DNA of 64,000 bases from Methanoplanus endosymbiosus (lineage in GTDB: Archaea > Halobacteriota > Methanomicrobia > Methanomicrobiales > Methanomicrobiaceae): the NCBI RefSeq assembly GCF_024662215.1, contig NZ_CP096115.1, forward strand, positions 496,001-560,000. Reading direction: 5' to 3'. Positions 917-17,681 of the stretch are shown here, in pieces. Position numbers and translations under genes: made by a program. Each line of letters begins with the position of its first letter. The stretch's first letter is position 1. The notes under the pieces are model-generated. The model made no database searches. It worked only from the letters and a program-made list of their open reading frames with translations, and was not told the origin of the DNA.

Positions 917-1041
917 TCATCTATGCTTCGTTAAGTTATCCTCTCAGGAATAAATGGCGGCACTTTAAAATATCCATGAATTTTAAAGTCGGATGCTTAA
1001 AGGAGAACAATTTTAATTATTGAAAGTTACGTAAATTGACT
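917..1041. repeat. Left copy of a direct repeat of about 125 bp flanking the Rpn array
   Basis: This stretch is nearly identical to 3757-3882 and in the same orientation. Shared landmarks are TTCGTTAAGTTATCC, AATGGCGGCACTTTAAA and CGGATGCTTAAAGGAGAAC. Inside it is an inverted repeat, ACTTTAAAAT at 962-971 and ATTTTAAAGT at 980-989, with an 8-nt loop. Just before it (856-930) are short tandem duplications of TTACAGTGTTTCAACA and TTTCATCTATGCTTCG. The two copies enclose the complete Rpn gene and all its extra modules. Confidence 0.8.
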
Positions 1042-1264
1042 ATAAACAATCATACGCCTTTGCAATCAAAGGTTTTAGCCTCCGCAGCCATCTTTAACTC
1101 CTCCTTCGTTGTTTTGATTCAGAAAACATCAGGCAAAGATATTTCTGGATTGTTGTTACAGTCTGAAAAACCGGCTGCAACGGGGAAATAATGTACAGAA
1201 TGGAAATAATGGAGATTGGGAAAAATATAAGTTTCCGGAAGACAGATAAAAGCCTCAGTTCTCA
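1042..1264 (-). pseudogene. Truncated and decayed Rpn C-terminal cassette
   Basis: This is a fifth, broken copy of the repeated unit. It keeps the spacer at 1185-1264 and the beginning of the module down to the part equivalent to KIAKAY. It then ends abruptly at the left 125-bp repeat, so the IEKG repeat and the C-terminal helices are missing. Single-base changes and indels interrupt the frame; for example, the module start reads TTTTGATTCAG where the intact copies read TTTGCATTCAG. It marks the distal end of the array. Confidence 0.7.
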
Positions 1265-1615
1265 CTATGGTTCAACTTCAGATCTGAGCTGAGCAATTTT
1301 ATCTGCGGAAAGTCCGGTCGCTTTCATTATGATCTCGTCATCCATACCAAGTAATATCAGATTCTTTGCACTATGAATAATTCCTTCTTCTCTTCCTTTT
1401 TCTTCTCCTATCTCAATTCCTTTCTCAATTCCTATCTCTTCAGCCGCCTGTATCTTTAGATCAACCTCAATAATCTGTGCTATCCTCTCCTCATATAACC
1501 GCCTGTTCTCCTCATCATCGCTCATCTCAATCAAACGATTATATGCCTTTGCAATCTTCGGTTCAGCCTCCGCAGCCATCTTTAACTCCTCCTTCGTTGT
1601 TGCATTCAGAAACAT
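1265..1615 (-). pseudogene. Orphan Rpn C-terminal module, copy A
   Basis: This open frame encodes only the C-terminal region of the Rpn-type nuclease found complete at 2759-3634: MFLNA, a helical region, an IEKG-type repeat, then the closing part ending in LRSEVEP. The nuclease domain is absent. Four divergent 4-residue units are present (IEKG, IEIG, EEKG, REEG), so this copy differs most from the others. The ATG at 1615 is the first internal ATG of the module. A longer frame from a TTG at 1666 also exists, but a one-base difference near the junction puts it out of phase with the parental protein. It may be a silent cassette or a small expressed protein. Confidence 0.6.
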
Positions 1616-1750
1616 CAGGCAAAGGTATTTCTGGATTGTTGTTACAGTCTGAAAACCCGGCTGCAACGGGGAAATAATGTACAGAATGGAAATAATGGAG
1701 ATTGGGAAAAATATAAGTTTCCGGAAGACAGATAAAAGCCTCAGTCCTCA

Positions 1751-2113
1751 CTATGGTTCAACTTCAGATCTGAGTTGAGCAATTTTATCTGCAGAAAGTC
1801 CGGTCGCTTTCATTATGATCTCGTCATCCATACCGAGTAATATCAGATTCTTTGCACTATGAATAATTCCTTTCTCAATTCCTTTCTCAATTCCTTTCTC
1901 AATTCCTTTCTCAATTCCTTTCTCAATACCTATCTCTTCAGCCGCCTGTATCTTTAGATCAACCTCAATAATCTGTGCTATTCTCTCCTCATATAACCGC
2001 CTGTTCTCCTCATCATCGCTCATCTCAATCAAACGATTATACGCCTTTGCAATCTTCGGTTCAGCCTCCGCCGCCATCTTTAACTCCTCCTTCGTTTTTG
2101 CATTCAGAAACAT
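1751..2113 (-). pseudogene. Orphan Rpn C-terminal module, copy B
   Basis: This is the second detached C-terminal module, almost identical at DNA level to copy C and to the 3' end of the complete gene. It has five IEKG units. The unit including its spacer is 498 bp, exactly 12 bp longer than copy A and 12 bp shorter than copy C. The stop TAG is followed by a spacer of about 100 nt that is the same in each unit. No good ribosome binding site precedes the ATG at 2113 or the TTG at 2164, so expression is unproven. Confidence 0.6.
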
Positions 2114-2248
2114 CAGGCAAAGGTATTTCTGGATTGTTGTTACAGTCTGAAAACCCGGCTGCAACGGAGAAAGAATGTACAGAATGGAAATAATGGAGAT
2201 TGGGAAAAATATAAGTTTCCGGAAGACAGATAAAAGCCTCAGTTCTCA

Positions 2249-2623
2249 CTATGGTTCAACTTCAGATCTGAGCTGAGCAATTTTATCTGCAGAAAGTCCG
2301 GTCGCTTTCATTATGATCTCGTCATCCATACCGAGTAATATCAGATTCTTTGCACTATGAATAATTCCTTTCTCAATTCCTTTCTCAATTCCTTTCTCAA
2401 TTCCTTTCTCAATTCCTTTCTCAATTCCTTTCTCAATACCTATCTCTTCAGCCGCCTGTATCTTTAGATCAACCTCAATAATCTGTGCTATTCTCTCCTC
2501 ATATAACCGCCTGTTCTCCTCATCATCGCTCATCTCAATCAAACGATTATACGCCTTTGCAATCTTCGGTTCAGCCTCCGCCGCCATCTTTAACTCCTCC
2601 TTCGTTTTTGCATTCAGAAACAT
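2249..2623 (-). pseudogene. Orphan Rpn C-terminal module, copy C
   Basis: This is the detached module closest to the complete gene, with six IEKG units in a 510-bp unit. Apart from the repeat number its sequence matches the 3' end of the complete gene very closely, including synonymous positions. That points to recent duplication or ongoing gene conversion. In the region around the parental EIPWLM sequence the copies carry one additional base, so upstream residues would be read in another frame. Translation could still start at the internal ATG at 2623. Confidence 0.6.
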
Positions 2624-2758
2624 CAGGCAAAGGTATTTCTGGATTGTTGTTACAGTCTGAAAACCCGGCTGCAACGGAGAAAGAATGTACAGAATGGAAA
2701 TAATGGAGATTGGGAAAAATATAAGTTTCCGGAAGACAGATAAAAGCCTCAGTTCTCA

Positions 2759-3634
2759 CTATGGTTCAACTTCAGATCTGAGCTGAGCAATTTTATCTGC
2801 AGAAAGTCCGGTCGCTTTCATTATGATCTCGTCATCCATACCGAGTAATATCAGATTCTTTGCACTATGAATAATTCCTTTCTCAATACCTATCTCTTCA
2901 GCCGCCTGTATCTTTAGATCAACCTCAATAATCTGTGCTATCCTCTCCTCATATAACCGCCTGTTCTCCTCATCATCGCTCATCTCAATCAAACGATTAT
3001 ACGCCTTTGCAATCTTCGGTTCAGCCTCCGCCGCCATCTTTAACTCCTCCTTCGTTTTTGCATTCAGAAACATCAGCCATGGTATTTCAGGATTGTTCTT
3101 ATGTTGACTTATCATATTATTAAGTTTTGGTAGTTCAACAATATGCACCTCCAGCACATCTGTCAGTTCAATCTCATTCTCCCGGTCATAAAACCTGTAA
3201 GTGGTGTGCATCGGTTCAACTGAAACAAGAATGTAATCCAGAATTACCAGTGAGATGGTTTTCTTAAGCACCTGATACCCGTCTCCTGATGAGATCTGCG
3301 AGGCATACAGCCTTGAGAGATAAAAAAGCACCCTCTCCTTAATTGCAGGGTGATCGCTCAGTTGAATCTCGACATCAACCTGAGCTCCCGAATCCAGCAC
3401 AATTCTGATGTCAAGAATCCCGGTTTTGTCACCGGATAACTGCTTTAAAAGATAGGGATCCTTAATCGTAATGTCTTGGACCGGAATTTTCAGCATGGTT
3501 CTTAAAAAAGAGATCGTTATCTCTTTGTTTTTTTCGTCCCCAAAGAGCAGCCTGAACGCAAAGTCATTCTTTGGAGACATTATAAAACTGCCATCCGGCG
3601 TGGTTATTGTGGGCGGAAAGTTATGTTTTGTCAT
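2759..3634 (-). CDS. Rpn family PD-(D/E)XK nuclease / putative transposase
   Basis: The start MSPKNDFAFRLLFGDEKN, about 19 residues into the protein, is the hallmark of the Rpn (PDDEXK_2, TIGR01784) family. These proteins are DNA endonucleases that stimulate recombination or act in phage defence. The catalytic core is ILDIRIVLDSGAQVDVEIQ, supplying D...D-ExQ. The C-terminal part is helical and carries a single IEKG unit before the closing LRSEVEP. I chose the ATG at 3634 (291 aa) over the TTG at 3664, because a TATA box at 3669-3677 places the likely transcript start downstream of the TTG. The C-terminal third is copied in tandem downstream. It is the parent of the cassettes at 1042-2758. Confidence 0.85.
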   Translation of the reverse strand: MTKHNFPPTITTPDGSFIMSPKNDFAFRLLFGDEKNKEITISFLRTMLKIPVQDITIKDPYLLKQLSGDKTGILDIRIVLDSGAQVDVEIQLSDHPAIKERVLFYLSRLYASQISSGDGYQVLKKTISLVILDYILVSVEPMHTTYRFYDRENEIELTDVLEVHIVELPKLNNMISQHKNNPEIPWLMFLNAKTKEELKMAAEAEPKIAKAYNRLIEMSDDEENRRLYEERIAQIIEVDLKIQAAEEIGIEKGIIHSAKNLILLGMDDEIIMKATGLSADKIAQLRSEVEP

Positions 3635-3667
3635 GGCAAAATACAGGAAAATAATATCTGACAATCA

Positions 3668-3678: not shown

Positions 3679-3756
3679 GCATCTGTTCTCTCCGAAAATT
3701 CAGGAAAGTATTCATAAATCCAATTTTACTCTTGGTTATTCTCAATATTATAGTCA

Positions 3757-3882
3757 TTTACCTATGTTTCGTTAAGTTATCCTCTCAGGAATAAATGGCG
3801 GCACTTTAAAATTTCCACAAATTTTAAAGTCGGATGCTTAAAGGAGAACAATTATTAATTATTGAAAGTTACGTAATTGACT
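3757..3882. repeat. Right copy of the 125-bp direct repeat flanking the Rpn array
   Basis: This matches 917-1041. It contains a perfect 12-bp inverted repeat with a 4-nt loop, ACTTTAAAATTT at 3803-3814 and AAATTTTAAAGT at 3819-3830. In the left copy the stem is shorter, so this copy may be closer to the original. It lies upstream of the Rpn promoter. It could be a terminator-like element, a target duplicated when the region was inserted, or a recombination site. Confidence 0.75.
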
Positions 3883-4060
3883 GTATTGCCAATCACATTC
3901 AGAGAATGTCAGGGCATACGTGCTATAATTCATCAGATGAATTATTCATGAATCCGGAACATAATAAGAAATAATAAGCCAGAATATAATTCTGCGGACT
4001 GGCCTCTGCCGTTAGTTTTTTTAAAGGATAATATCAAAGAAATTATAAAGGTGAAATATC

Positions 4061-4903
4061 ATTTCAGTAATTACTTTTGCTCATCATAAAGGCGGAACAG
4101 GAAAAACCACATCATGCCTGAATATTGGGGGTTTTCTTCAGAAATCCGGAGAAAAAGTTCTGATAATTGACTGTGATCCACAGGCCAATGCAACAATTGG
4201 TCTTGGAATTAACCCCGATGAACAGGACATTAATATGTATGATGTCTTTATGAACATCTTTGAGGGATTTCCGGATGTGACAATAAAAGATGTCATTAAA
4301 GAGACAAAATCCGGAATATTCCTCGCGCCTTCATCACTTGACCTTGTGGGGGTTGAGCCTTATCTGTATAATATTGAAGACCGCTCTTCTGTTCTCAAAG
4401 AAGCTTTAAATTCTGTTATTAATGATTATGACCATATACTGATAGATACACCCCCAAGTATGGGACAGTTTGTATTAAACGGACTGATAGCCGCCGACAG
4501 GATTATTATTACCCTTGACAGCAGTTTTTTTGCAGGATATGGAATTGAAAGTCTCACAACTATTTTTTCAGATATTGAAGAGAGCATAGGCAAAAAAAGA
4601 AGTGCAGATATGGCAATCATCACAAAAACCGGAGAACTTCAGGAGGTAAAAGCACCTGTTGATGAGATGATTCAGTCTTTTAAACGGCTTTTATCCGGAA
4701 AGAAGGAAAAATTTGATGAGAATACTCTTCTTGATGAGATTGAATCCGATCTCAGGATAAATATAAAAGAGATCTGCACAGTTCCATATGATTTCAATAT
4801 AATATATTCACAGAAAGAAAATATGCCCATATCACACACACATCCCAAGTCCAGAGCAGCACAAAAGTACAGTGATATTTCAGAGATTGTCAGAAATTGG
4901 TGA
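4061..4903 (+). CDS. ParA/MinD-family ATPase with non-canonical start
   Basis: This is a deviant Walker-type ATPase of the ParA/MinD family, which forms ATP-dependent dimers and positions cellular cargo. Visible motifs are the Walker A AHHKGGTGKTT near the N-terminus, DCDPQAN, and the Walker B-like ILIDTPPS at about residue 128. A stop codon lies at 4052-4054. No ATG, GTG or TTG occurs between it and Walker A; the first ATG, at 4235, would delete the nucleotide-binding site. The natural start is therefore ATT at 4061 (or ATC at 4058), preceded by a GGTGA ribosome binding site at 4050-4054. The chemoreceptor gene begins 5 nt after its stop, suggesting that it positions that receptor. Confidence 0.8.
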   Translation: MSVITFAHHKGGTGKTTSCLNIGGFLQKSGEKVLIIDCDPQANATIGLGINPDEQDINMYDVFMNIFEGFPDVTIKDVIKETKSGIFLAPSSLDLVGVEPYLYNIEDRSSVLKEALNSVINDYDHILIDTPPSMGQFVLNGLIAADRIIITLDSSFFAGYGIESLTTIFSDIEESIGKKRSADMAIITKTGELQEVKAPVDEMIQSFKRLLSGKKEKFDENTLLDEIESDLRINIKEICTVPYDFNIIYSQKENMPISHTHPKSRAAQKYSDISEIVRNW

Positions 4904-4908
4904 TTTAA

Positions 4909-7900
4909 TTGAGCAATGATAAGCCAGGAATGAAAAGACCAGGAAGAAAAGCCTTATTTGCCGGGGCACAGACAGAAATTCCGGAGAGAAAGCCTGAAAA
5001 AAATGCGGAACTCATAAAATTCATTGATGAATTCAGAAGGGTATCAGGAGAATATGTAAAAGGGAATACTGATGCAAGGCTTAAAGACAGTTATTCTGAG
5101 AAGGACCTCTCAGATATTGCATCACTTACAAACTCAATACTGGATATTTCGTCTGAAAAATCTTCAGAAATACTGATCAGTTCAGAGAAGGAGGAAGAAT
5201 ATAAGCAGAAGATCAGTGAACTTGAAGATAAAATAACAGAACAGATTTCTGTTAAAGAGAGGGAAATCGGAATTTTAAAGCAGGAAATAAAGGAATATGA
5301 ATCAGGTAAACCAAAAATTTCCGGATATGAGAATGATATACAGAGCCTTACGAAAAAGACCGAAGAATTAAAGGATATAATAGAAGAACTTGAGTCAGAA
5401 AATAAGGATTTAAAAGATCTGCTCAATGAAAAGGATTCACTGATTGATACATTTAAAAAGGACATTTCTTCAATACGGGATAAAATAGAGGAGGAAAAAA
5501 AGGTTTCTTTTGAAAGTGGTCTGAATTCCGGAAGGGAAGAGAAGAATAAGGAAATTTCCGACATTAAAAGATCAATTCAGAGTGAAAAGGATAAATTTTA
5601 CAGGAAAGGTCTGGATAAAGGTCTTGAAGAGAAAAATAATGAAATAAACAGGCTTCAAAAATCCTTTGAAAAATTAAAGGGCAGTGCATTTGACGAAGGA
5701 TATAGCAAAGGGGCAAAAGAGGGGTATGAGAAGGGAAATAATGACGGATATAAGAAGGGAAAGAATGATGGATATGAGTGGGGAAACAGCGAAGGGTATG
5801 AGAGAGGAAATAATGACGGATATGAAAAGGGAAACAGCGAAGGGTATGAGAGGGGAACTGAAAAGAGTAACGATGAACTGAAATCACAGAATAATAAAAT
5901 TGAAGAGCTGAATTTACGATTAAAAGATAATCAAAAGGTAATAGAGAATTTAAGTGATGAAATTACCTCAAAAGAATCAGAATTCTCAGTAATATATTCA
6001 GAGACTGAAGCTATTAAATCTCAGCTGGCAGAGAAGGATTCAGAAATAAGTAAAATTGAATCTCAGCTTGCAGAGAAAGGTTCAGAGATTGAAGCTTTAA
6101 AATCCCGCTATTCAGAGGAAAAAACAGAAACTGAACTGTTAAAATCACAGCTGTCGGAGAAAAATGCAGAGATTGAGCAGATATACTCTCAGTTGACGGG
6201 AAAAGATTCAGAGACTGAAGAGATTAAATTACGACTGGCAGAGAAAGATTCAGAGATTGAGACTATAAAATCCCGGTATTCAGAGGAAAAAACAGAAAAT
6301 GAACTGTTAAAATCACAGCTGTCGGAGAAAAATGCAGAGATTGAAGAGATAAGATCTCAGCTGACAGGAAAAGATGCAGAGATTGCAGAGATTAAATTAC
6401 GACTGGCAGAGAAAGGTTCAGAGATTGAATCTATAAAATCCCGGTATTCAGAGGAAAACACCGAAATCGAACTGTTAAAATCACAGCTGTCGGAGAAAAA
6501 TGCAGAGATTGAAGAGATAAGATCTCAGTTGACAGGAAAAGATTCAGAGATAAAAGGGATAAAATCTCAGCTGACAGGAAAAGATTCGGAGATTGAGCAG
6601 ATAAAATCTCAGTTGACAGGAAAAGATTCGGAGATTGCAGAGATAAGATCACATCTGGCAGAGAAAGATTCGGAGATTGAAGAGATAAGAACTCTGATAG
6701 ATAATAATAATTCAACAATTAAAGAGAAAGAAAATCTGATTAATGACCGGAATCTTGAAATAAATAAATTAAAATCAGAACTGAACAAAAAAAATTCCGA
6801 TATAAAAGAGAAGGAATCAGAATTAACCAGAAAGGATTCTGAGATAAGAGAAGCAGAATCAGAACTGAACAAAAAAGATTCTGAGATAAGAGAGAAGGAA
6901 TCCAAATTAACCAGAAAGGATTCTGAGATAAGAGAAGCAGAATCTGAACTGAACAAAAAAAATTCCGATATAAAAGAGAAGGAATCAGAATTAACCAGAA
7001 AGGATTCTGAGATCAGAAAAGCAGAATCTGAACTGACAAAGAAAGATTCCGGGATAAGGCAGAAGGAATACGAACTGGGTGAACTCAGGAAGAGATATGA
7101 AAATGTCAGAGAGTCTGCATATAATGAAGGCTTCAGTAAAGGATTAAATGAAGCAGAAAGTAAAACCACAGATGAGATAAGAAGAATTAATCTTGAAAAT
7201 GAAAGTATTTCCTCCCGGTTCAGTGATTTGAATGAAGAACTGAGGAAAAATGAAGAATTATTCAATATAAAAAGAGACGAACTGGAAAACAGAGCTGAAA
7301 GATCAGAACGGTGGTTTGAGACAGTAATCCGTGAAAACCTGATGCCTGTTCTTCTTCTGGATAAAAATTTAAGAATTGTACATAGCAGCAGAGGATTTGA
7401 AAAACTGAGTAAACTTACGGAATACAAATTAACCGGAAGAAATATTAGTGAATTTAAAACCACTGTGATAACAGGAGATAAAATCTCATCGGTTATAGAG
7501 AATAAATCTGCATCTTCTTCAGAAGTAACAATTCAGTTACCCTCCGGAGAACATACTCTGAATCAGCATGCCATTCCTTTAAAAGAGAGAGACGGGACAG
7601 TATCCGGAGTAATTCTAATCTGCAATGACATAACCGCAATCAGAGAGAAGGAAGAGTTACTAAACAGAAAGCTCCGGCAGAACGAAGAACTCAAAAAGCG
7701 CTCAGAAACAATTGTACAGGAAAATCCAATGCCAATTCTCCTTGTTGACAACAGATTCAATATCATCGTCACAAACAATGCCTATGAAAAGATGAGCGGA
7801 ATATCACAGCAAAAACTGCTGAAGATGAATGCCAGGGATTTCACCCTCGCCTCTCAGGAGGGAGAAGGTCTGAATACAGCCCTTAAAAGCAAAAAGAGAA

Positions 7901-9171
7901 GTTATGGAGAGGTCACAGTTGATCTCCCTTCCGGCCGCCACATCCTTGAACAGTATGGCATACCTGTTCTTGACAGTAATAACAATGTACATGCGCTCCT
8001 GATTGTATATAATGAAATTACCAAAATCCGGGCAAAGGAGAGAGAAGTTCAGGAATTAATGGAGAAAGCCAGAACAGAAGCAGAAAAACTCTCAGAAAGT
8101 GCAAAAATTCTAAAGGTCCGGATGAAATTAATTGCATCAGGTGATCTGAGAGTGTCAGCAGAGATAACCGAAGATGATCCCCTTCATGACCTGAAAACGG
8201 ATTTCAACAACTCAATGAATAAAATAAACAGCCTTCTCCTTGGCATAGACGGAAATATTGGTTTAATTGACAAAACATCCAAAGAACTGAGCGGAAACAG
8301 CAGTAAAATATCATCTGCAACAGAAAAACTTGCAGTTAATTCAGGAGAATCCGCTGAATCCAACAGTAAGATAATAGATCTCTTCGGTGAGATCAGCAGG
8401 GGAATAACTGATCTCTCAGCCTCAATAGAAGAGATCTCCGGAACAAGCCAGGAAGTGATGACGCAGGCAAAGAAAGTTACTGAAGAAGGCAGATCAGCTG
8501 CTGAAATCGGTAAAAAAGCATCCGGAAAGATTGAAAATGTGGGTGTTATATCAAAGAAAAGTGTGGATGAAATAAATGCCTTAAACGAGGAGATGTACAA
8601 AATAAACGATATTGTCAGGTTAATTGCCGGAATTGCCGAGCAGACCAATCTCCTGGCACTGAATGCTGCCATTGAAGCCGCACGTGCAGGCGAGCATGGC
8701 CGTGGATTTTCAGTTGTAGCCGAAGAGATCAGAAACCTTGCCCGTGAATCAAAGGGTGCAACCAGGAATATTGAAGACTTAATTAATAAGATCCAGAAGA
8801 ACAGTGAGCAGACAACCGAATCCATGAAAAAGGTTGATGAAGAGATAACTGACAGTATTGGCAGTGTAAACCTTGCAATAGATGCCCTTAACAATATTGT
8901 AGAGGATATAGGCGGAGCAACAGACGGCATAATTGAAATAACCAGGGCAACAGAAAATCAGGCAGATGAAACCAATAAATTCCTGGAGAATATTGAAAAA
9001 GCCAACAGAATGGCAAATGAAAACCTTAAATCTGTACAGAACATATCTGCATTTGCAGATGATATCAGTGTAAGTACAGAGGAAGTCAGCAGTATTTCAC
9101 ACGAACTTCACAAAATGTCATCAAATCTTGAAGAGATGATGAAGAAATTTAAACTGAAATCTCCAAATTAA
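4909..9171 (+). CDS. Giant cytoplasmic methyl-accepting chemotaxis protein
   Basis: This 1420-residue chemoreceptor has no transmembrane segment. Order of parts: a basic N-terminal segment [11 protein letters not shown] (residues 9-19); coiled coil; an octapeptide Gly-Tyr repeat (about 264-318); 25 consecutive 14-residue coiled-coil repeats (371-720); two PAS domains (about 800-900 and 932-1045); a HAMP-like segment (about 1070-1110); and the MCP signalling domain with hairpin tip [19 protein letters not shown] near residue 1244. PAS domains usually sense redox state or small ligands, so an internal signal is likely. The start is a TTG at 4909 after GGTG at 4899-4902. The ParA-like gene lies 5 nt upstream and cheR follows. 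Confidence 0.9.
5698..5858 (+). repeat. 24-bp tandem repeat inside the chemoreceptor gene
   Basis: Six or more successive 8-residue units of the form GYEKGNND or GYERGNSE are encoded here. The spacing of Gly and aromatic residues resembles the IEKG repeats of the Rpn protein, although the codons differ. It forms a flexible or alpha-helical linker between two coiled-coil segments. Confidence 0.8.
6019..7068 (+). repeat. Twenty-five 42-bp units encoding 14-residue coiled-coil repeats
   Basis: The reading frame here consists of exactly 25 consecutive 14-residue units of the type [14 protein letters not shown], two heptads each, without a break. Units 3-6, 7-10 and 11-14 form a higher-order repeat of four units (SRYSEE, SQLSEK, SQLTGK and, in the first two, LRLAEK). 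Units 19-24 alternate SELNKK and SELTRK types. This indicates expansion by unequal recombination in several rounds. Confidence 0.9.
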
Positions 9172-16466: not shown

Positions 16467-17681
16467 CTACAGAAGTAAATTAATAACGCTTACAAGCATG
16501 GTTGCACCGGCAAGATCAATAAAACTGGTGATGACAGGAATACCAAAATTGTCCGGGTCAAAACCTCTCTTAAATGAGAATACTGCTGTTGCATAGCCGA
16601 TTATATTTACAAAAGTAACCACAATCAGCCCTGCAATAAGGCTAATTTCAATAATAACCAAAAGTCCGGGTGAATCCATCGAGAAGAAGATGGCCGAACA
16701 GTGGGCGATTACAGCCATTAAGGGCAGCAGTATTACTGCATATAAATAGGTTACAGAGAAATAACCGAATATCTCTCTTCCGGGCTTTAGATTATACGGA
16801 ATTTCTCCCATATGCATTCCGGTGGCAAGCCTTGAGCATAAAATTCCGCCAATTGAACCACAACCACCTGTAAAAGGCGGAATTAATACCAGAAAAACAG
16901 AGAAGGTTATCAGTTCCTCCATATCCACTGCATAGGTAATCCCCGCAAAAGTCCCGACAACAGACAGAACAGCAAGTAACGGGAGAATCTCCCTTGTAAT
17001 CTCAGCTATATCCACACTATTTTTAAAGGCCATATAAAGGCATAACAGCGAGATCAGAAGAACCACAATTCCGGCAATATACTTCACTTCAGCCGGAAGC
17101 GAGATGACAAGTATTGCCGTCATCATAAGCGCAGGCAGGGTTATGATGTCCCCTGAAGTGGTGACTGCCGGAGATGCAATCATATCAAGATCAATCTCTC
17201 TTTTATAACTCACAATTGTGATCAATATTGAAATTCCGGTTACTAAAAGCCCGGATAAAATTCCGGATATGACAGATATTAAAATAAAATCCAGCAGAGT
17301 TATACCTGCCAGTCCAAAGAAGGCAGTGATCACATATGCAATAATTCCAAGCAGAAATGCAATTACTGTTGTAACATAAATGGAAGCACGGACATTATAA
17401 CCAAGCACACTCGATTTGGAGAAATCGATCTCAAACTCCCCAAGGTGCATTGAAGAGGCAAGCCTTGAGGTTAAGACACCCGTAACACTGCCCCGCATAT
17501 TGATGGAGGGCGGAACCAGAACGATGAGGCCCGGAATTAAGGCAAGAAGCTCCCTAACCGAGCCTAAATAAACGCCTGCGGCAGTAGCTGCAAATGCAGT
17601 TATAAGCAATGCCAGGAGACCTGTCAGAATCATCCTGCAATATCCAGAGTCTACTGCCGTACGGAGATTCATCACCTTCAC
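16467..17681 (-). CDS. MgtE/SLC41-like divalent cation permease
   Basis: This 404-residue integral membrane protein has two homologous halves, each with about five transmembrane helices. Each half carries the repeated pattern of an SLC41/MgtE core: LIVLVPPSINMRGSVTGVL with SRLASSMHLGEF, and VFLVLIPPFTGGCGSIGG with SRLATGMHMGEI. It lacks the cytoplasmic N and CBS domains of bacterial MgtE. That role may be filled by the PhoU/TrkA-C protein encoded 52 nt downstream. The likely substrate is Mg2+ or another divalent cation. Confidence 0.82.
   Translation of the reverse strand: MKVMNLRTAVDSGYCRMILTGLLALLITAFAATAAGVYLGSVRELLALIPGLIVLVPPSINMRGSVTGVLTSRLASSMHLGEFEIDFSKSSVLGYNVRASIYVTTVIAFLLGIIAYVITAFFGLAGITLLDFILISVISGILSGLLVTGISILITIVSYKREIDLDMIASPAVTTSGDIITLPALMMTAILVISLPAEVKYIAGIVVLLISLLCLYMAFKNSVDIAEITREILPLLAVLSVVGTFAGITYAVDMEELITFSVFLVLIPPFTGGCGSIGGILCSRLATGMHMGEIPYNLKPGREIFGYFSVTYLYAVILLPLMAVIAHCSAIFFSMDSPGLLVIIEISLIAGLIVVTFVNIIGYATAVFSFKRGFDPDNFGIPVITSFIDLAGATMLVSVINLLL

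What the first reader, a model, noticed from the sequence alone, without database searches (positions are those of the whole stretch)
1042..3664. Rpn nuclease gene followed by a tandem array of its own C-terminal modules
One complete Rpn-family gene is followed by three open copies and one broken copy of only its C-terminal part, nearly identical in DNA and head to tail. In E. coli, work on Rpn phage-defence proteins described small proteins made from inside the gene that contain only the C-terminal part and block the full-length toxin. An array of detached C-terminal modules would therefore be a ready store of antitoxin-like proteins, or a cassette store for changing the C-terminus by recombination. 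I am not aware of an archaeal example of such an array.
Basis: partly seen in the sequence, partly recalled or inferred. Interest (0 to 1): 0.8.

Follow-up and report, generated by a model that had tools for sequence, protein, structure and literature searches.

The report
Tandem stand-alone antitoxin-like Rpn tail genes
In a methane-making archaeon, a nuclease gene of the Rpn toxin family is followed by three intact copies and one ruined copy of just its tail, each intact copy keeping its own start signal for protein synthesis and differing mainly in the number of a four-residue repeat, so they look like a small array of separate antitoxin-type genes rather than debris; single genes of this kind were already known in E. 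coli, but not such an array in an archaeon.

Summary
On the minus strand, a full Rpn gene (2759-3634; PF12784, PD-(D/E)XK residues intact) is followed head to tail by three open C-terminal modules and one broken one. Among 48 divergent Rpn genes, 30 have SD>=5 plus ATG in this 12-codon stretch, against 10.1+-2.5 in synonymous shuffles. The module tail matches the crystal structure of E. coli RpnA-S (profile E 4.7e-5; 46/46 residues, 1.6 A). All six substitutions between copies outside the repeats are synonymous (P about 1e-4). The sister species, Methanospirillum and some bacteria also have detached modules. Best reading: stand-alone rpnS-type (antitoxin) genes. E. coli ypaA/rpnE-S is already published, so this is a new variant: a tandem array, archaeal, PF12784 branch, with a longer S. 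The modules carry 24/28/32-residue linkers against 12 in the neighbouring toxin; by the E. coli rule they should not neutralise it, so their target is open. Expression, binding and toxicity are untested.

The parts
2759..3634 (-). Full-length Rpn (RpnL-type) gene, PF12784/TIGR01784; catalytic-type residues D85, E99, Q101 (numbering of the 301-aa ORF that starts at 3664)
   Evidence: Pfam E 1e-55; TIGR01784 E 3.6e-49; D85/E99/Q101 invariant in 55 sequences; AF2 pLDDT 89.5
3046..3052 (-). Internal Shine-Dalgarno AAGGAGG inside the full gene (candidate internal translation start)
2759..3037 (-). Predicted internal S product of the full gene, ATG at 3037, 92 aa, linker 12 residues
2249..2587 (-). 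Stand-alone S module 1, 112 aa, linker 32 residues; SD at 2596-2602
1751..2077 (-). Stand-alone S module 2, 108 aa, linker 28 residues; SD at 2086-2092
1265..1579 (-). Stand-alone S module 3, 104 aa, linker 24 residues; SD at 1588-1594
1042..1195 (-). Broken fourth module: SD and ATG (1091) kept, but frameshifted and cut off
2363..2446 (-). 12-bp tandem repeat (GIEK units) of module 1
1865..1936 (-). 12-bp tandem repeat (GIEK units) of module 2
2603..2758 (-). Spacer plus junction leader between full gene and module 1 (repeated before modules 2 and 3); holds a TATA-like CTTATATT, function untested
3753..3879 (-). 127-nt dispersed repeat upstream of the full gene
921..1034 (-). Second copy of the dispersed repeat (96%) just beyond the broken module; array and gene lie between the two

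Best explanation
The array is a set of stand-alone rpnS-type genes (three intact, one dead) downstream of their parent rpnL-type gene. A C-terminal piece cut just upstream of an internal ribosome-binding site was duplicated and then amplified in tandem; slippage of a 12-bp repeat made the copies different in length (shown by sequence). Each intact copy would be translated from its AAGGAGG-ATG into a helical S protein of 104-112 aa that dimerises through the repeat-bearing long helix and binds Rpn C-termini, restraining Rpn nuclease activity (inferred from E. coli RpnA and RpnC). Because the copies have repeat lengths unlike the adjacent toxin, the most likely targets are Rpn proteins or S partners of other lengths, or the length rule is looser in this branch (inference).
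For: Internal SD-ATG at position 210: 43 of 46 homologues with a start codon there have SD>=4; 30 of 48 non-redundant genes against 10.1+-2.5 in synonymous shuffles, no other window alike. Every intact window module keeps it, as do the intact modules examined in G001, L102 and L136. The L starts shown for G000/G001 lack an SD, so S should be translated better than L. Six of six substitutions among the four intact copies outside the repeats are synonymous, P 0.9-3.5e-4, while the broken copy changes at all codon positions. Module-to-module dN/dS is 0.12-0.29 elsewhere. The module profile hits PDB 7TH0 (RpnA-S), E 4.7e-5; 46/46 residues of 7TH0 align to model residues 249-294 at 1.6 A, Z 7.2. 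Linker lengths are all multiples of 4. Detached modules recur in the sister species, G199/L058 and L066, L102 and L136. In E. coli, ypaA starts exactly at rpnE's internal start and its protein is detected.
Against: No transcript, protein, binding or toxicity data. Repeat number never matches the neighbouring L, in the window or in the other pairs compared, E. coli included; in E. coli a one-repeat mismatch abolishes neutralisation. Synonymous-only change could also come from gene conversion with the full gene. Per-gene codon shuffles for the archaeal sequences alone are not significant (P 0.12-0.63); the signal needs the wider set. Two G001 pairs have dN/dS of 0.5-0.6. One of the four window units is dead. 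Modules in L058 and L066 have lost the ancestral SD-ATG, and only other, weaker starts are seen there.
Confidence: 0.6

Rival explanations
1. Neutral tandem duplication: the modules are unexpressed debris of a recombination-prone gene, kept similar by recent origin and unequal crossing-over.
For: Copies are nearly identical and therefore young; one is already broken; fragments and decayed copies also occur elsewhere (L108, L077, remnant next to L012).
Against: Six of six synonymous changes in intact copies against changes at all codon positions in the broken one; SD-ATG kept; recurrence with junctions upstream of the SD in several lineages; low dN/dS between modules.
Confidence: 0.2
2. Cassette store: modules are donors that change the C-terminus and repeat number of the full-length gene by recombination.
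For: High DNA identity would allow conversion; repeat numbers differ between units; G001 module 15230 has a tail identical to a distant full gene, not to its neighbour.
Against: No converted full gene seen in G000: L011 and L012 tails differ from the array tails; a donor needs no SD or start; variation in repeat number can arise by 12-bp slippage alone.
Confidence: 0.1
3. Dosage (a sub-case of the best explanation): the modules simply add antitoxin against the adjacent toxin, repeat number being irrelevant in this branch.
For: Same strand, short spacers, possible co-transcription; tail and helix sequence outside the repeats identical to the parent.
Against: In E. coli RpnC one extra repeat abolishes neutralisation; linkers are 12 against 24/28/32.
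Confidence: 0.25

Closest known systems
E. coli rpnE with downstream ypaA (rpnE-S), and rpnC with a second rpnC-S (Zhong et al. 2023, PMC10327210)
   Same: Stand-alone copy of the C-terminal module directly downstream, starting exactly at the parent's internal start; four-residue repeats differing in number from the parent
   Different: One module, not a tandem array; parent belongs to PF04754, not PF12784; S of about 49-81 aa starts just before the repeats, here 104-112 aa with extra N-terminal helical sequence
E. coli RpnA-S, PDB 7TH0
   Same: C-terminal three-helix part homologous (profile E 4.7e-5; 1.6 A over 46 residues)
   Different: Here the S protein extends about 40 aa further upstream and the repeat helix is longer
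rpn gene arrays (tandem full-length genes, same paper)
   Same: Tandem direct duplication of an rpn region
   Different: Here only the C-terminal module is amplified

Membership tests
Rpn / COG5464 nuclease (PF12784, TIGR01784) | Full-length match above curated cut-off | tested here: met
   PF12784 189 bits (cut-off 27.4); TIGR01784 168 bits (cut-off 52.1)
Rpn / COG5464 nuclease (PF12784, TIGR01784) | Intact PD-(D/E)XK-type active-site residues | tested here: met
   D85, E99 and Q101 invariant in 55 sequences; model resembles McrC and NucS nucleases at Z 5-7 (modest scores)
RpnL/RpnS gene-within-gene toxin-antitoxin | Ribosome-binding site and start codon inside the gene for the C-terminal part | tested here: met
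   At sequence level only; translation itself not shown
RpnL/RpnS gene-within-gene toxin-antitoxin | C-terminal part homologous to RpnS | tested here: met
   7TH0 by profile E 4.7e-5 and by structure
RpnL/RpnS gene-within-gene toxin-antitoxin | Four-residue repeats of variable number in the S helix | tested here: met
   Linkers 12/24/28/32, all multiples of 4; long helix in models
RpnL/RpnS gene-within-gene toxin-antitoxin | Repeat number of S equal to that of the L it neutralises | tested here: not met
   For the stand-alone modules against the adjacent L (12 against 24/28/32); trivially met by the internal S. Not a formal family criterion, but a rule shown for E. coli RpnC
RpnL/RpnS gene-within-gene toxin-antitoxin | L toxic nuclease, S binds and blocks it, phage defence | not testable with these tools
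   No experimental data for this organism
Stand-alone rpnS gene (ypaA type) | Separate ORF beginning at the former internal start, downstream of an rpn gene | tested here: met

The most novel reading that the evidence does not exclude
The array is a ladder of antitoxin variants (linkers 24, 28, 32) that does not serve the adjacent toxin but protects the cell from Rpn toxins of other repeat lengths, arriving by gene transfer or arising by slippage: a growing, cassette-like immunity store in an archaeon.
Probability: 0.22. Interest if true: 0.85.

Novelty: new variant of a known kind. Interest (0 to 1): 0.62.

Why it matters
If right, the Rpn gene-within-gene toxin-antitoxin design extends to archaea and to the large PF12784 branch, with a precise predicted internal start that can be tested in dozens of species. 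The array gives natural length variants of one antitoxin next to one toxin, which makes the open question of what the four-residue repeats specify directly testable. It would also show how a nested antitoxin gene can escape from its toxin and multiply.

Tried and rejected
Assembly artefact: rejected, units differ. Module ORFs starting at TTG in the spacer: disfavoured; the leader is out of frame with the parent sequence at the junction, and the one amino-acid change between window modules outside the repeats (K to T) lies upstream of the internal ATG. A transposon with the flanking repeats as ends: the 127-nt repeat occurs at seven places in the genome, so it is a dispersed element rather than a target duplication made here. 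A joint L+S model by read-through of the stops: dropped, because the aligner put the homologues' tails on the S part, leaving L's own tail uncovered. Single-gene codon shuffles are too weak alone. phmmer with single sequences found no solved relative; the profile did. Foldseek E-values for both models were above 0.001, so the nuclease-fold match is supportive only. L066 is labelled Cloacimonadota, but its proteins are nearly identical to G199's, so it is treated as possibly misbinned.

Full report
What is there. The minus strand carries a complete Rpn gene, ORF 2759-3664, matching PF12784 at E 1e-55 and TIGR01784 at E 3.6e-49. Below it, in the same direction, come three open C-terminal modules and one broken one, in units of 450-510 nt that are 92-100% identical. 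From genome size and family I think the genus is Methanoplanus, but this was not tested. Two other full Rpn genes, L011 and L012, are 85-86% identical in protein and have no module array; next to L012 a 30-nt piece of a module junction remains.

The internal start. Upstream of each module's conserved part and at the same place inside the full gene stands AAGGAGG, 8 nt, ATG: SD 3046-3052/ATG 3037 in the full gene, and ATGs at 2587, 2077, 1579 and (dead copy) 1091. The ATG is Met210 of the 301-aa ORF, and E206, E207 and M210 are invariant in 13 diverse sequences. With 80 further loci from public genomes, position 210 is the top internal SD-plus-start column: of 91 sequences 46 have a start codon there, 43 with SD>=4 and 39 with SD>=5; the next column has 22. 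In 48 sequences less than 70% identical, 30 have ATG plus SD>=5 in codons 204-216 against 10.1+-2.5 (maximum 17 of 200) when synonymous codons are shuffled within each gene; no other window shows this. Single-gene tests on the archaeal genes are not significant, so the claim rests on the wide comparison. In the window only 3.8% of start-like triplets have SD>=5, and the full gene's own ATG has none, so the small protein should be the better translated product.

What the module encodes. AlphaFold2 on the full protein (55 sequences) gives pLDDT 89.5 and pTM 0.82: a mixed nuclease domain, then helices 205-214, 216-230, a long helix 232-273 with the repeat, and two short helices. The module alone gives helices 7-20, 23-84, 89-96 and 100-110, pLDDT 86.6 but pTM 0.47. 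A profile of the S part finds PDB 7TH0, E. coli RpnA-S, at E 4.7e-5; structurally all 46 residues of 7TH0 fit residues 249-294 at 1.6 A, Z 7.2 (Z under 8 alone would be weak, but sequence and structure agree). So these S proteins are RpnS with a further N-terminal stretch of about 40 residues. The nuclease part resembles McrC and NucS/EndoMS at Z 5-7, and D85, E99 and Q101 are invariant.

Selection. Outside the repeats, the four intact copies differ at six sites of the S frame, all third positions and synonymous; the chance is 0.9-3.5e-4 depending on transition bias. The dead copy differs at all codon positions. The one amino-acid change outside the repeats, K to T, lies upstream of the internal ATG. 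Elsewhere, module against module gives dN/dS 0.12 (L136), 0.22 (L066) and 0.29 (L058 against L066); two G001 pairs reach 0.5-0.6. Gene conversion from full genes could mimic part of this.

Recurrence. The sister species G001 has detached modules at L034 15230-15607, 17025-17342 and 17478-17807 and L035 12164-12541 and 4289-4708, plus one partly masked. The module at 17025 is cut just upstream of the SD, with the SD kept. G199, another family of the order, has two modules in one ORF after a full gene (L058 7887-8633); these and the related L066 modules have lost the ancestral SD-ATG, though their frames stay open and conserved. L066 has a longer array; L102 (Bacillota) and L136 (Clostridia) have one and two modules with the SD kept. 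In E. coli K-12 ypaA starts at rpnE's internal start.

Repeat number. All 18 linkers measured in G000 and G001 are multiples of four residues. In the window the parent has 12 and the modules 32, 28 and 24. No detached module that I compared matches its neighbour: window, G001, L102, L136 and five distinct E. coli allele pairs. Repeat number is hypervariable between full genes too, so this does not prove selection for mismatch. But Zhong et al. report that one added repeat abolishes neutralisation by RpnC-S, which argues against simple dosage.

Prior work. Zhong et al. 2023 (PMC10327210) reported internal RpnS antitoxins, stand-alone rpnS genes downstream of rpnE and rpnC, variable four-residue repeats, tandem rpn arrays and rpn genes in two archaeal phyla. 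Full-text searches found no later paper on RpnL/RpnS; most subscription journals are not held. I found no report of tandem module arrays or of the internal start of the PF12784 branch; supplements could not be read, so either may be there.

Conclusion. Shown: the array, the kept SD-ATG, homology to RpnS, synonymous-only change and recurrence. Inferred: translation, dimerisation and restraint of an Rpn nuclease. Open: which Rpn proteins the modules act on.

Noticed in passing
921-1034 and 3753-3879: A 127-nt dispersed repeat flanks the Rpn gene and array in direct orientation; seven matches in the genome at 80-100%, none in the sister species.
   Followed up: partly
4909-9171 (+): 1420-aa protein with long coiled-coil and tandem repeats (24, 42 and 84 bp), PAS domains and an MCP signalling domain, next to a ParA-like ATPase at about 4055-4903.
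   Followed up: no
858-932: Two 16-bp tandem duplications side by side (ATTACAGTGTTTCAAC and TTCATCTATGCTTCGT) next to the flanking repeat.
   Followed up: no
G199:C1:1392135-1399133: Run of seven Rpn-type C-termini in open frames of 344-370 aa about 1.1 kb apart: a tandem array of full-length Rpn-like genes.
   Followed up: no
L077 4974-5858; L062 3540-4480: Rpn genes split by a stop or frameshift so that nuclease part and S part are separate frames.
   Followed up: no
L164-L172 (E. coli): In five distinct rpnE/ypaA allele pairs the detached S never has the repeat number of the adjacent L.
   Followed up: partly
L066: Contig binned as Cloacimonadota carries Rpn genes nearly identical to those of the archaeal genome G199; probably misbinned or recently transferred.
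   Followed up: no
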